From assembly GCF_016862195.1 (NCBI RefSeq), contig NZ_BOMM01000003.1, positions 1 through 64,000 of the forward strand: 64,000 nucleotides of DNA, read 5' to 3'. The translations under genes were made by a program, and so were the position numbers. Positions 11,094 to 17,760 of this stretch are shown here, in pieces. Numbering within the stretch: position 1 is the stretch's first letter; each line of letters opens with the position of its first letter. The notes below the pieces were generated by a model. That model did no database searches. It saw only the letters and a list, made by a program, of their open reading frames with translations, and was not told the origin of the DNA. Origin of the DNA: Paractinoplanes ferrugineus. Its GTDB lineage: Bacteria; Actinomycetota; Actinomycetes; Mycobacteriales; Micromonosporaceae.

Positions 11094-12485
11094 ATGCCGA
11101 ACGGTCGTCGAGACGTCCTGCTGAAGGTGGCGAACGTCAATCCGGACAGTGTGAGCACGCACACCGACCGGGTCCTCTACTCCGCCATCGGCGTGTTCGT
11201 CCTGCTGTACTTCGTGTACGCCACCGTCGGCGGTGCCGCGTTCATCGACGCCAGCTCCAACTACCAGCAGCCGTGGTACCGCTGGCTGGTCGGCCCGATG
11301 ATCGCGGCCGGGGTGGTCGCCTACGACCGGGCGGTGATCGGCCGAGTCGGGATCAGCTACGACAAGCTGGAGTCCACCGACCCGCACGAGTTCCTCCGCA
11401 AGCCGACCGTCGGCCTCTACCTGGGCCGGCTGGGCCTCGCCGTGCTCTTCGCGGTGCTGATCACCGAGCCGTTGATGCTCGCCCGCTACCAGGGTGAGAT
11501 CGACGCCCGGCTCAACGTGATGCACAACGAGCAGCTCAACGAGATCGACCGGCACGGCGTGGTCGGCACCTGGACGGCCCGGCTCAACCAGCTCAAGCAG
11601 GAGGCGGCGGCCGACGACGCGGTCGTCCGCGACCTCACCGAACGGGCCGCGCAGAAACGTCGTGACGCCCGCACCATGTACCAGCAGGCGATCGACGACT
11701 CGGCCGGCGACGGGGTCTCCCGCAACACCGGCTGCCCGCACGGCGGTTACTGCGATCAGCTGGTGCGGCGCTCCCGAAGCCTCGACGACCAGGCCGCGGT
11801 GCTCGACCAGCAGGCCGGGACCCTTCTCGACACGCAGCGGTCGGCCCGCGACGCCCGGGCCACCGAACAGGCCGAGCTCACCCGGCAGATCGCTGAGCAG
11901 CGGCAGACCAACCACGACGCGGTGCGGGCCGACGCCGGCTTCGGGGCCCGTACGGCCGCCATGTGGTACCTGGTGACCAGCGACTTCTGGGGCGTCGGCG
12001 TCTTCTACCTGGGCATCACGCTGCTGCTGGTGGCCCTGGACTGTGCCGCGGTCGGGCTCAAGTTCGCCTCCCGGGGCAACGCGTACGAGCGCAACGAGGC
12101 CCGCATCGCCCGCCGCCGGGAGCACGAGGCGGCCCTGCTGCACGAGCGGGAGATCGAGGACGCGCGCACCTACAGCCTGGCGATGGCCAAGGTCGTGACG
12201 GACGGCATCCAGACCGCGATCCACGACGAGAAGGTCGCCCGGGAAGCGGCCGAGCGGGCCGGTGCGGTGCTGTTCACCTCGGTGGCGCTGCCGGAGGCGG
12301 TACGCAAGCTGACCGCGCACCGGGGCCGGCACTACCGGCCCGTGCACGGCGAGTTGCTGGGCACCGACGACGAGAACGAGCCGATGCGCAACGGCCGGCA
12401 CCGCCGGTCGATCCGTACCCCGGTGATCATCGACGGGGAGCCGACCGTCCTTCCGGCAAACGGGCGGCACTACCGCCCGCTCTAG
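11094..12485 (+). CDS. DUF4407 membrane protein
   Basis: 463 residues with a DUF4407 layout: N-terminal membrane segments (RVLYSAIGVFVLLYFVYATVGG, WLVGPMIAAGVVAYDRAVIG, LGRLGLAVLFAVLITEPLML), a long Gln/Glu/Arg-rich coiled-coil stretch (about residues 135-290), a fourth membrane segment (GVGVFYLGITLLLVALDCAAVG), and a charged cytoplasmic tail ending in repeated GRHYRP-type motifs. The motif N/R-GR-H-R/Y recurs four times near the C terminus. Function unknown. The stop shares CTAG (12482-12485) with the convergent gene. Confidence 0.8.
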   Translation: MPNGRRDVLLKVANVNPDSVSTHTDRVLYSAIGVFVLLYFVYATVGGAAFIDASSNYQQPWYRWLVGPMIAAGVVAYDRAVIGRVGISYDKLESTDPHEFLRKPTVGLYLGRLGLAVLFAVLITEPLMLARYQGEIDARLNVMHNEQLNEIDRHGVVGTWTARLNQLKQEAAADDAVVRDLTERAAQKRRDARTMYQQAIDDSAGDGVSRNTGCPHGGYCDQLVRRSRSLDDQAAVLDQQAGTLLDTQRSARDARATEQAELTRQIAEQRQTNHDAVRADAGFGARTAAMWYLVTSDFWGVGVFYLGITLLLVALDCAAVGLKFASRGNAYERNEARIARRREHEAALLHEREIEDARTYSLAMAKVVTDGIQTAIHDEKVAREAAERAGAVLFTSVALPEAVRKLTAHRGRHYRPVHGELLGTDDENEPMRNGRHRRSIRTPVIIDGEPTVLPANGRHYRPL

Positions 12486-15153: not shown

Positions 15154-16206
15154 TCAGTCGCGCACCGGCATCAGGATCGAGAAGCGGGAGTCGTTGCCCG
15201 CGACCCGCAGCGCGAGCGGCTTGATCGGCCCGTCCAGTTCCAGCACGAGCTGCCCCGGACCGCCGGCATCGATCGCTTGCAGCAGGAACTCCCGGTTTAC
15301 CGCGACATGCCGCTCGGCGGCCTGCGTCCACTCGCTCTCGGCTGCCAGGCGGAGGCTTCCGGCCTGGTCAACCCCCAAGATCGCGACATCGTACGGGGTT
15401 CCGTGGTGCTCCCGGTGCACAAGCGGCGCGGCCGTCAGCAACTCCCGCAAGCGCGCGGTGTCGATGGTCACCCGCGTCGCCGGCTCGTCGAGCTCGACCA
15501 GACGGCGGTAGTCGGGGAAGTCGACCGGCAGCGGCTTGCCGTCGACGACCCGGCCGCCGGTCTCGGCCCGGATCGCGTCGCCGGCCAACTCCAGCACGAC
15601 CTCACCGGCACCGGAGGACAGCAGCTCGTCGACGAACGACACCGGCAACGACAGCCGCACGGGCGGCCCCTCGACATCGGCCGGCACGGTGGCGAGCGCC
15701 ATCCGGAACCGGTCGGTCGCGACCAGGGTCAGTCCGCGATCGCCGGTCTCGAACAGGACGCCGGGCAACAGGCCGGCCGGGTCGGCGGCGGCGAAGCGCA
15801 CGGCGTGGAGGCCCGCAGCGAGTGCGGCGGCGGGCAGCGTGATGCGTGTCATGAGTTTCTCCTCCAGGTCAAGCAGGGCATGGATGCGCAGAAGCTCACG
15901 CTTGGCGTCGGCCAGACCGTCCTCGAGCCGCCGACGATGCTCGTCGAGCCGGCGGCGAACCGAATCCGGTCTGTTGCTCAGTTCCTGGACCGCCAGCGCG
16001 ATCTCCGCGACCGGCATGCCCACTCGGCGCAGCCCGGCGATCAACCGGGCCGCCCGAAGCTGTTCGGCGCTGTATCGGCGATAGCCGGTGGCCGCGTCCA
16101 CCTCGGCCGGCACCAGCACGCCGGCACCGTCGTAGAACCGCAGCGCACTCACCGACAGCCCACTGGCCCGAGCCATCTCGCCGATGCCGCGCATGTCTCC
16201 TCGCAC
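15154..16206 (-). CDS. MerR regulator fused to a DnaN clamp-like module
   Basis: 350 residues. Residues ~5-115 are a MerR DNA-binding domain and dimerisation helix (GIGEMARASGLSVSALRFYD, GYRRYSAEQL, coiled RRRLDEHRRRLEDGLADAKREL). Residues ~119-350 match the second and third domains of the bacterial DNA polymerase III beta clamp: ETGDRGLTLVATDRFRMA, VDFPDYRRLVE, VAVNREFLLQAI, KPLALRV and the C-terminal ILMPVR. Domain I of the clamp is missing. GTG start at 16206; ATG at 16194 is an alternative. A strong internal start at 15852 could give the clamp module alone. A MerR-type operator lies just upstream. Confidence 0.8.
   Translation of the reverse strand: MRGDMRGIGEMARASGLSVSALRFYDGAGVLVPAEVDAATGYRRYSAEQLRAARLIAGLRRVGMPVAEIALAVQELSNRPDSVRRRLDEHRRRLEDGLADAKRELLRIHALLDLEEKLMTRITLPAAALAAGLHAVRFAAADPAGLLPGVLFETGDRGLTLVATDRFRMALATVPADVEGPPVRLSLPVSFVDELLSSGAGEVVLELAGDAIRAETGGRVVDGKPLPVDFPDYRRLVELDEPATRVTIDTARLRELLTAAPLVHREHHGTPYDVAILGVDQAGSLRLAAESEWTQAAERHVAVNREFLLQAIDAGGPGQLVLELDGPIKPLALRVAGNDSRFSILMPVRD
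15850..15866 (-). promoter_or_regulatory. Internal ribosome binding site and ATG
   Basis: GGAGGAG (complement of 15860-15866) is followed at ideal spacing by an ATG (15852-15850) in frame at codon 119 of the MerR-clamp gene, exactly at the domain junction. Initiation here would give a free 232-residue clamp-like protein. Confidence 0.55.
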
Positions 16207-16223
16207 CCCGCTGACCTTGGTGT

Positions 16224-16244
16224 CTCAACCTGGTCGAGAGTCAA
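16224..16244 (-). promoter_or_regulatory. Putative MerR-type operator/promoter
   Basis: Inverted repeat CTCAACC-T-GGTCGAG (16224-16238; one mismatch per arm) directly downstream of a minus-strand TTGACT -35-like hexamer (complement of 16239-16244). MerR regulators typically bind such a dyad in the spacer of their own promoter. It overlaps the end of the lysE gene. Confidence 0.5.
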
Positions 16245-16837
16245 CCAAGGAGGAGGCTGAGCGCAATGCCCGCCATGACCACCGCGATCAGGCCGTCGAG
16301 AACCCGCCAGGCAGCCGGCCGGGAGAGCAGCGGAGCCAGCCGGTGCGCCCCCGCGCCCAGAGCGGTGAACCAGACCAGGCTGGCCGCGGCCGCACCCAGC
16401 CCGAAGATCCAGCGATGCGGGTGCCGCTGCGCGACCGAGCCGAGCAACAGCACCGTGTCGAGGTAGACGTGCGGGTTGAGGTAGGTCAGGGCCAGGCAGG
16501 TGAGCACCGTCGCGCCGAGCGTGGCCGGCGCGCGGTCGGCCGGCTGCAGCTGGGCGGGACGCATCGCCCGGCGGGCCGCCATGATCGCGTAGGCCGTCAG
16601 GAAAGCGGCTCCGACCCAGCGGATCAGCGTGACCGCGTCGGGGCGTGCGGTGACCACGGCGCCGAGGCCGCCGATGCCGACCAGGATCAGGAACAGGTCG
16701 GACAGGGCGCAGACGGCCACGACGGCGACCACGTGCTCGCGACGCAGCCCCTGCCGCAGGACGAACGCATTCTGCGCGCCGATCGCGATGATCAGGACGG
16801 CGGAGGCGGCGAACCCGGCGAGGGCGGAGGTGAGCAC
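16241..16837 (-). CDS. lysE: LysE/ArgO-family basic amino acid exporter
   Basis: 198-residue inner-membrane exporter with about six hydrophobic segments and the family hallmarks IGAQNAFVLRQGL near the N terminus and LTYLNPHVYLDT in the middle. It exports lysine and/or arginine. Divergent from the LysR-type regulator at 16909, the standard lysE-lysG arrangement. Only 34 bp separate it from the downstream MerR-clamp gene. Confidence 0.9.
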   Translation of the reverse strand: MLTSALAGFAASAVLIIAIGAQNAFVLRQGLRREHVVAVVAVCALSDLFLILVGIGGLGAVVTARPDAVTLIRWVGAAFLTAYAIMAARRAMRPAQLQPADRAPATLGATVLTCLALTYLNPHVYLDTVLLLGSVAQRHPHRWIFGLGAAAASLVWFTALGAGAHRLAPLLSRPAAWRVLDGLIAVVMAGIALSLLLG

Positions 16838-16908: not shown

Positions 16909-17760
16909 GTGGATCAGGTGCAGTTGACGACTTTCCAGGCCGTGGTGGAGACCGGAAGCTTCGAGGCCGCCGCCCGCCAGTTGCACGTCACGCCGTCGGC
17001 GGTGAGCCAGCGGATCAAGGCCCTGGAGAGCGCGGTCGGCCAGGTGCTCGTCCGGCGGGCGAAACCGTGCGTGGCGACGACGGCGGGGGAGGCACTGGTC
17101 CGGTTCGCCGGGCAGGTCGCGCTGCTGGAGCGCGAGGCGCTCGCCCAGGCCCGTGACCGCGCCCGCGTCTCGATCGTGGTCAACGCCGACTCGCTCTACC
17201 TGTGGTTCCTGCCGGCCCTGGCGGCGGTGCCCGGTCCGATGTACGAGTTGCACACCGACGACCAGGACTACACCGCCGACCGGCTGCGATCCGGCACAGC
17301 GATGGCGGCGGTGACCGCCGAGCACGTCCCGGTGCAAGGCTGCCGGATCGAAGCACTCGGCTCGATGCGCTACCTCGCGGTCGGCCCGTCGACCGACCTG
17401 TCGGACCTGGCGATGATCGTCTACAACCGCAAGGACCAGTTGCAGCACCGCTTCCTGGCCTCGATCCGCCGCCGGATCGATCCGCCCATCCATTACGTGC
17501 CCGCCGCGGCGTCCTTCGTCGACGCCATCCGATTCGGATTGGGCTGGGGCATGGTGCCGGAGCCGATCGCCCGAAAGGACATCGCCCTGGGCCACTACGT
17601 CGAAATAGCGCCCGGCACACATCTGGACGTGCCGCTCTATTGGCAATACTGGAAAATCGACTCGACGGTTCTGAAGGACCTGACCGCGGCCGTCAAATCA
17701 GCCGCCGCGCAGTTCCTCGACCGGCCCGCTCCCGACCCCCGGGCCGGAATCGCGGAGTAG
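16909..17760 (+). CDS. lysG: LysR-family regulator, LysG/ArgP type
   Basis: 283 residues. N-terminal winged helix (LTTFQAVVETGSFEAAARQLHVTPSAVSQRIKALE) and effector-binding domain with the ArgP/LysG features VVNADSLYLWFLPAL and ELHTDDQDYT. In this family the protein senses lysine or arginine and activates the divergent exporter. GTG at 16909. Convergent with dapD, 13 bp between stops. Confidence 0.88.
   Translation: MDQVQLTTFQAVVETGSFEAAARQLHVTPSAVSQRIKALESAVGQVLVRRAKPCVATTAGEALVRFAGQVALLEREALAQARDRARVSIVVNADSLYLWFLPALAAVPGPMYELHTDDQDYTADRLRSGTAMAAVTAEHVPVQGCRIEALGSMRYLAVGPSTDLSDLAMIVYNRKDQLQHRFLASIRRRIDPPIHYVPAAASFVDAIRFGLGWGMVPEPIARKDIALGHYVEIAPGTHLDVPLYWQYWKIDSTVLKDLTAAVKSAAAQFLDRPAPDPRAGIAE

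What the first reader, a model, noticed from the sequence alone, without database searches (positions are those of the whole stretch)
15154..16206. MerR regulator fused to a two-domain DNA sliding-clamp-like module
The C-terminal 232 residues carry DnaN hallmarks (LTLVATDRFRMA, FPDYRRLVE, KPLALRV, terminal MPVR) covering clamp domains 2 and 3; domain 1 is missing and a MerR DNA-binding domain stands in its place. A clamp pocket attached to a transcription factor could bind proteins with clamp-binding motifs (polymerases, mismatch repair) and link replication or damage state to transcription. MerR proteins dimerise, so two modules would form a four-domain partial ring. I recall similar annotations in actinomycetes but no characterised member.
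Basis: partly seen in the sequence, partly recalled or inferred. Interest (0 to 1): 0.85.

Follow-up and report, generated by a model that had tools for sequence, protein, structure and literature searches.

The report
Sliding clamp as drug-sensing switch
This actinomycete gene encodes a MerR-type gene switch fused to two of the three domains of the DNA sliding clamp and lies behind its own MerR-type promoter; it likely senses molecules that plug the clamp's docking pocket, such as clamp-targeting antibiotics, and would answer by making more of itself as a decoy.

The parts
15154..16206 (-). MerR-clamp fusion gene, GTG start, 350 aa; the GTG lies 7 nt after the -10, so the mRNA is likely leaderless
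16214..16244 (-). MerR-type self promoter: -35 TTGACT (16239-16244), 19-bp spacer (16220-16238), -10 CAAGGT (16214-16219)
   Evidence: same layout in 79 of 80 named loci and in 29 of 29 fusions of the class sample
16224..16238 (-). operator core CTCGACCAGGTTGAG, imperfect palindrome inside the spacer
15985..16185 (-). MerR winged-helix DNA-binding domain (residues 8-74 of the 350-aa form)
15871..15969 (-). long helix, residues 76-108 of the 346-aa form; likely the MerR dimerisation coiled coil (dimer inferred)
   Evidence: secondary structure of the model
15850..15865 (-). predicted internal translation start: GGAGGAG (15859-15865), 6 nt, ATG (15850-15852) at the first residues of the clamp module
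15511..15837 (-). clamp domain 2 (PF02767), with pocket residues TDRFRM (160-165); FPDYRRL (226-232, 346-aa numbering) runs on just past its end
15157..15483 (-). clamp domain 3, with pocket residues N300, F303 and the C-terminal LMPVR (341-345, 346-aa numbering)
   Evidence: Pfam PF02768 alone is below its cut-off

Best explanation
The protein joins a MerR DNA-binding domain to clamp domains 2 and 3, whose docking pocket is conserved while recalled DNA-lining and ring-closing positions are not, and it likely works like TipA: a ligand in the clamp pocket, probably a DnaN-targeting peptide antibiotic, would switch the likely MerR dimer to activate its own 19-bp-spacer promoter. Shown by sequence or model: the domain make-up, the fold, the pocket conservation, and the self-operator before all 29 sampled complete fusions. 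Predicted: a second, clamp-only product from the internal ATG, acting as a soluble decoy that soaks up the ligand. In other genomes of two genera the same operator also stands before MFS exporters and a TPR-like gene, and in Micromonospora-like genomes in the dnaA-dnaN region facing dnaN. There the switch would add efflux and more of the drug's target, DnaN. Inferred: the ligand, the direction (activation), the operator's binding by this protein, and the decoy's effect.
For: Fold. Pocket: the 18 pocket positions listed in PMC11139829 (passages) have mean entropy 0.87 bits against 1.87 for 209 other clamp columns over 56 fusions, p 7e-6; the T172, R176, M362 and P363 equivalents are invariant. 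Recalled DNA-lining positions (mean 1.93) and the 5 of 13 scorable D3-interface positions (2.65) are not conserved. Self-operator: 80 of 81 sequences, window included, and 29 of 29. Strict pattern: 16 sites in 14 of 20 fusion-bearing genomes, 14 of the 16 directly before the fusion, control 0. Internal start: 58 of 81 have ATG as best start there and all 58 have SD energy <= -6, against 12% of 297 other in-frame ATGs; Arg codons 2-6 codons before the start are AGG in 29 of 46 against 55 of 3080 elsewhere; AGG in 22 of 23 chosen Streptomyces loci. Cognate operator: the TPR-like gene lies within 1.5 kb of the fusion in 13 of 16 clade-II loci (five of the 13 only 30-34% alike), and among the 30 best TPR homologues of the window's genus, none within 1.5 kb of a fusion, 18 have the strict operator and 4 a near match upstream. 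Further targets: of 100 operator sites opened, 37 precede the fusion, 19 dnaN, 8 one MFS family; 3 more a second MFS type. dnaN operator in 18 of 30 genomes (16 strict, 2 near; 29 evenly drawn plus the centre G466), 688-714 nt upstream. TipA plan: PMC7762955 (passages and Discussion). Mycoplanecin and griselimycin in the DnaN pocket: PMC10817943 (passages and section 11).
Against: No ligand is shown; peptides of clamp partners use the same pocket. A first, recalled list of subsite-2 residues was not conserved (mean 1.76 vs 1.79), though the published subsite II list is (0.91). The window's own genome has only the self-operator under the strict pattern, none before dnaN and no TPR homologue at 1e-12. 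dnaN operators were seen only in the Micromonospora-like genus; 30 sites opened in the window's genus include none. 11 of 81 sequences lack a good internal start, and the five clade-II sequences of A1 show no Met there. The start test picks the best codon of a 24-codon stretch while the control takes all, so it is biased upward. A window-wide scan of synonymous constraint shows no peak at the internal start. The oriC operator block is no better conserved than the rest of that region (rank 352 of 781). 11 of the 100 operator sites have no identified target, so other MerR proteins may share the motif. Relatives are not independent of each other.
Confidence: 0.58

Rival explanations
1. Replication-state sensor, near the first reader's idea: the pocket binds clamp-binding-motif proteins (polymerases, MutL, clamp loader) when they exceed free clamp, and the switch then raises dnaN and itself to restore balance.
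For: The pocket is the shared docking site of clamp partners (PMC11139829 passages) and stays conserved. The operator lies in the dnaA-dnaN region facing dnaN in 18 of 30 Micromonospora-like genomes.
Against: Under the strict pattern the eight genomes of the Streptomyces-like genus g8 searched have no site but the self promoter, the 30 sites opened in the window's genus include no dnaN, and the window's own genome has none there. MFS exporters among the targets fit a small molecule better. A clamp-only short form would take partners from the real clamp. The gene is patchily distributed (complete in 29 of 394 class genomes), odd for a basic replication control.
Confidence: 0.22
2. Generic MerR multidrug sensor: the clamp module has become a loose hydrophobic pocket for unrelated lipophilic compounds, as in BmrR or TipA-class proteins, with no special link to DnaN inhibitors.
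For: MerR plan, efflux targets and a self-operator. Many unrelated small molecules sit on E. coli DnaN in solved structures (titles).
Against: The clamp residues kept are the DnaN docking residues themselves, and in one genus the operator lies before dnaN; a generic sensor would need neither.
Confidence: 0.14
3. Plain duplicate-clamp leftover: the clamp part serves only as a scaffold or dimer aid of an ordinary regulator and binds nothing.
For: Domain 1 is gone and recalled ring and DNA-lining positions are not conserved.
Against: Selective conservation of the pocket across two clades 27-34% identical.
Confidence: 0.06

Closest known systems
TipA class (TipAL/TipAS, MerR + TipAS domain)
   Same: MerR HTH and coiled coil plus a C-terminal ligand domain; one gene as sensor, activator and neutraliser; two products from two start codons in S. 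lividans (PMC7762955). Here: self-operator and a predicted internal start at the effector domain.
   Different: The effector is clamp domains 2-3, not the TipAS domain (PF07739 not among the hits); ligand unknown; internal start absent in part of the family.
DnaN, beta sliding clamp
   Same: Fold of domains 2-3 and the docking pocket.
   Different: No domain 1, DNA-lining and scorable dimer-interface positions not kept, fused to MerR, below the dnaN equivalog cut-off.
GriR / MypR, second DnaN proteins in griselimycin and mycoplanecin gene clusters (PMC10817943 passages)
   Same: Extra clamp tied to DnaN-binding antibiotics, if the reading here is right.
   Different: Those are described as DnaN genes in the biosynthetic pathways, implied in self-resistance; this is a partial clamp on a transcription factor. 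The recurrent neighbours of its loci did not look biosynthetic, but no cluster search was run.
BmrR and other MerR multidrug regulators; AlbA (PMC6078987 seen in a search listing only)
   Same: MerR-type or TipA-like drug binders; the MerR half matches BmrR-type chains.
   Different: Unrelated effector domains; I recall none that mimics the drug's own target.

Membership tests
MerR family regulators | N-terminal MerR winged helix-turn-helix | tested here: met
   PF13411 49.9 bits, cut-off 21.6; PF00376 43.3, cut-off 28.2
MerR family regulators | palindromic operator inside an over-long (19-20 bp) promoter spacer | tested here: met
   19-bp spacer in the window and across relatives; binding itself not tested
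TipA class | C-terminal TipAS domain (PF07739) | tested here: not met
   Pfam scan at E <= 1 lists no PF07739; the C-terminal part matches clamp models
TipA class | autoregulation: operator at its own promoter | tested here: met
   (location only; regulation not measured)
TipA class | short effector-only product from a second start codon | tested here: inconclusive
   SD + start in 70 of 81 sequences and rare AGG codon usage; absent in 11 of 81 and in the five clade-II sequences of A1; no protein data
TipA class | antibiotic binding activates transcription | not testable with these tools
   needs binding and reporter assays
DnaN sliding clamp | three clamp domains | tested here: not met
   only domains 2-3
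DnaN sliding clamp | score over the dnaN equivalog cut-off | tested here: not met
   60.1 bits against 137.65
DnaN sliding clamp | partner-binding pocket residues | tested here: met
   pocket entropy 0.87 vs 1.87; R152 and V344 equivalents not kept
DnaN sliding clamp | basic DNA-lining residues and dimer interface | tested here: not met
   position lists recalled and approximate; 8 of 13 interface positions could not be scored because of gaps

The most novel reading that the evidence does not exclude
A transcription factor that uses a piece of the replication clamp as bait: it detects clamp-blocking antibiotics by target mimicry and fires a dedicated clamp-stress regulon of decoy clamp, efflux pumps, a TPR-like protein and, in Micromonospora-like genomes, extra DnaN driven from a promoter inside the chromosome origin.
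Probability: 0.45. Interest if true: 0.92.

Novelty: new variant of a known kind. Interest (0 to 1): 0.78.

Why it matters
If true, actinomycetes carry a dedicated alarm for DnaN inhibitors, a drug class pursued against tuberculosis (griselimycins, mycoplanecins; PMC10817943). The sensor copies the drug's own target, so the operator could serve as a reporter to find new clamp inhibitors. It would also give a direct regulatory link between clamp-pocket occupancy and dnaN/oriC. The self promoter (16214-16244) and the separately expressed clamp module make the idea directly testable.

Tried and rejected
Neighbour clustering around 80 named loci plus the window with a crude gene caller: a LysE-type gene (13 loci) and a methyltransferase-like gene (15 loci) recur in Actinoplanes-type loci, what looks by eye like SerS in 19 Micromonospora loci; no cluster except the fusion itself runs across most genera, so no general operon in clade I.

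Phages: no match. Plasmids: 6 records, five Streptomyces and one Embleya; of these one was opened, an 898-kb linear record whose 15 annotated genes around the fusion include a P450 and ABC transporter genes but no NRPS.

A conserved leaderless peptide between the oriC operator and dnaN: of 13 genomes translated from the first start after the operator, 6 share a long open frame and 7 are cut short or read another frame, so I do not claim a gene. The oriC operator block is not more conserved than its surroundings (rank 352 of 781 windows).

Window-wide synonymous constraint at the internal start: no peak; only the codon choice at single positions stands out.

My first recalled pocket lists: main pocket 0.58 against 1.87 bits, but the recalled subsite-2 list was not conserved (1.76 against 1.79). 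The published list was then used. The recalled DNA-lining list also holds two positions that are not basic in E. coli.

Relaxed operator search (<= 3 mismatches) in 13 genomes: in the seven genomes whose rows were listed, the last only in part, the best site is the self promoter; weaker sites run above control counts (for G000 32 against 13), and no further targets are claimed from it.

Association of the dnaN operator with a canonical (clade-I) fusion: 23 of 33 (18 strict, 5 near-strict) against 0 of 7, Fisher p 0.001. The 40 genomes were picked partly by operator count and six of the seven are small genomes that may be one clade, so this is not a clean test. In one search the same table was entered as 22/11 by mistake; one search is right. 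The sample (16 strict + 2 near of 30, the centre G466 included) is the fairer prevalence.

The MerR paralogue of the window genome (G000:C65) ends in a sequence unlike the clamp, and the strict operator pattern has no site there.

One search read reverse-strand loci on the wrong strand and was discarded; one search is the corrected version. L006 (frame break) was left out of the alignments. L109 (internal stop) was left out of the alignments and of the Streptomyces codon set but stayed in the DNA-level counts.

Full report

FAMILY. A search of 5.8 billion proteins returned 2521 hits at E <= 1e-3 (7996 candidates scored, 120 listed). Nearly all of those listed cover 97-100% of the query; where named, they are mostly Actinoplanes or Paractinoplanes proteins called 'MerR family transcriptional regulator' or 'DNA polymerase III subunit beta family protein'. 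In 394 genomes of the class, 29 have a complete fusion; one more starts at model position 35, and two have split or partial matches (the call's tally of 364 also counts plain MerR and DnaN proteins). The fusions fall into two clades, 27-34% identical to each other: clade I with the window, and clade II, whose five members scanned all have PF02767 over cut-off. Eighty named loci near the window's clade come from Actinoplanes, Micromonospora, Streptomyces, Kitasatospora, Pseudonocardia, Geodermatophilus and others (capped at the best 80).

POCKET KEPT, RING LOST. Over 56 fusions aligned with E. coli DnaN, the 18 docking-pocket positions named in PMC11139829 (passages) have mean entropy 0.87 bits against 1.87 for 209 other clamp columns (p 7e-6). 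The equivalents of T172, R176, M362 and P363 never vary. R152 and V344 equivalents are not kept, and a first, recalled subsite-2 list was not conserved. DNA-lining positions (mean 1.93) and the D3 dimer-interface positions that could be scored (2.65; 8 of 13 could not) are not conserved; both lists are recalled and approximate. So the module looks like a pocket on a stalk, not a ring. A four-domain ring is not supported.

SELF PROMOTER. In the window the - strand reads TTGACT, 19 bp, CAAGGT, 7 nt, GTG, with CTCGACCAGGTTGAG inside the spacer. TTGAC[CT]CTC stands before the gene in 80 of 81 sequences (80 named loci plus window; the exception, L086, keeps the palindrome); -10 and palindrome sit at a fixed 19-bp spacing, and in 70 of these 80 the first ATG/GTG follows 5-8 nt after the -10, which suggests leaderless mRNA. 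In the class sample 29 of 29 complete fusions have such a promoter, clade II mostly with TTGACCTTC. With a strict pattern, 14 of 20 fusion-bearing genomes have 16 sites, 14 of them directly before the fusion and 2 extra in one genome; the reversed control pattern gives none. The six genomes without a site carry clade-II fusions. A clade-II pattern hits 5 of 11 genomes once each, always at the self promoter.

INTERNAL START. At the first residues of the clamp module most clade-I genes have an in-frame start after a strong Shine-Dalgarno: in the window GGAGGAG, 6 nt, ATG at 15852-15850. Of 81 sequences, 76 have an in-frame ATG/GTG in codons 105-128 and 70 have SD energy <= -4 there; all 58 whose best start is ATG reach -6, against 12% of 297 other in-frame ATGs (the target takes the best codon of the stretch, so the contrast is somewhat inflated). 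Arg codons 2-6 codons before the start are AGG in 29 of 46 cases against 55 of 3080 elsewhere, and the site is AGG in 22 of 23 Streptomyces loci that I chose. Eleven loci (ten Micromonospora, one Geodermatophilus) lack a good start, as do the five clade-II sequences of A1. A general scan for synonymous constraint shows no peak. I read this as a likely second product, the clamp module alone.

OTHER TARGETS. The strict operator was sought in 121 genomes of a Micromonospora-like genus (115 with a match, 2 control hits) and 67 of the window's genus (60 with a match, 3 control hits) (genus names inferred from protein names). Of 100 sites opened (70 and 30; taken from the head of the lists, not a random draw), 37 precede the fusion, 19 dnaN, 8 an MFS exporter, 36 something else. 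The 19 and the 8 are all Micromonospora-like. Among the 36, 18 have a TPR-like homologue in the stretch, 3 a second MFS type (two by Pfam, one by eye; one of the three in the window's genus), 4 a YunG-like gene (one by Pfam, three by eye), and 11 remain unidentified.

WHY THE OPERATOR LIKELY BELONGS TO THIS PROTEIN. The TPR-like gene lies within 1.5 kb of the fusion in 13 of 16 clade-II loci (five of them only 30-34% alike), in none of 13 clade-I loci of that sample, and in two Pseudonocardia loci of the 80 named. In the window's genus 45 of 67 genomes have a homologue; of the 30 best, none within 1.5 kb of a fusion, 18 have the strict operator within 400 nt upstream and 4 more a near match. 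One gene, two arrangements, one motif: this ties the motif to the fusion. The window's own genome has no TPR homologue at 1e-12.

dnaN. In 30 genomes of the Micromonospora-like genus (29 drawn evenly plus the centre G466), 16 have the strict operator and 2 a near match in the dnaA-dnaN region, always 688-714 nt upstream of dnaN and facing it. That region holds DnaA-box-like motifs and is the origin by general knowledge, so the promoter would read through the origin. In 40 genomes that I picked partly by operator count, 23 of 33 with a canonical fusion and 0 of 7 without have it. The window's genome has no such site before dnaN, and the 30 sites opened in its genus include no dnaN.

MECHANISM. 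PMC7762955 (passages and Discussion) describes TipA as a minimal autoregulated system: one gene, two start codons, sensor, activator and drug neutraliser. The layout here is the same, with clamp domains 2-3 as the ligand domain. PMC10817943 (passages and section 11) shows that mycoplanecin A and griselimycin bind this clamp pocket; griselimycins come from Streptomyces (abstract of PMC5676206 in a listing), mycoplanecins from Actinoplanes (recalled). I therefore propose: ligand in the pocket, MerR switch, self-activation, decoy; plus efflux and dnaN in some lineages. The ligand, the activation and the decoy effect are inferred. The main rival is a sensor of clamp-binding proteins.

NOVELTY. Searches of the held open-access library listed no paper whose title or shown abstract deals with a MerR-clamp protein: 15 of 51 papers listed; none; 3 of 3; none; 8 of 37; 12 of 13. 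Those papers were not opened for this, apart from PMC7762955, PMC10817943 and PMC11139829, and subscription journals are not covered. The family is visible in databases by name only, as far as seen. I rate it a new variant of the TipA kind, with a sensor domain that I do not know from that kind.

Noticed in passing
window 16241-16837 (-) and 16909-17760 (+): LysE-type exporter with a divergent LysR-type regulator, just upstream of the fusion; LysE recurs there in Actinoplanes-type loci.
   Followed up: partly
G671:C1:708685-709815 (-): Second full-length DnaN (75% identical to the window genome's DnaN) in one Micromonospora-like genome, reminiscent of the resistance clamps GriR/MypR.
   Followed up: no
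L008, L009, L010, L012, L120, L124, L127, L132, L137-L141; L148, L155, L173: TPR-like ~158-aa protein of unknown function: near the fusion in clade II, unlinked but with the operator elsewhere.
   Followed up: yes
G775:C1:5035600-5036800 and G745:C8:97600-99100: Clade-II-like fusion copies that look broken (a deletion remnant and a frame break), in small genomes without the clade-I operator.
   Followed up: partly
L161, L166, L198, L212, L222: Recurring operator site followed by a GTGACGT start in five loci, target gene not identified; L233, which has a YunG-like gene, begins alike.
   Followed up: no
L251-L286 region between the oriC operator and dnaN: From the first start after the oriC operator, 6 of 13 genomes share an open frame of roughly 145 codons across the DnaA-box region; 7 do not.
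   Followed up: partly
Streptomyces loci, codon 106 of the fusion (L106 numbering): Leu codon CTA in 17 of 23 loci, just before the internal start; I recall it as rare in these GC-rich genomes, and did not count its use elsewhere.
   Followed up: no
G713:C556:34313-34333: Operator before the TPR-like gene in a genome where no complete fusion was found; fragmented assembly (590 contigs).
   Followed up: no
window 11094-12485 (+): DUF4407 protein over cut-off near the finding.
   Followed up: no
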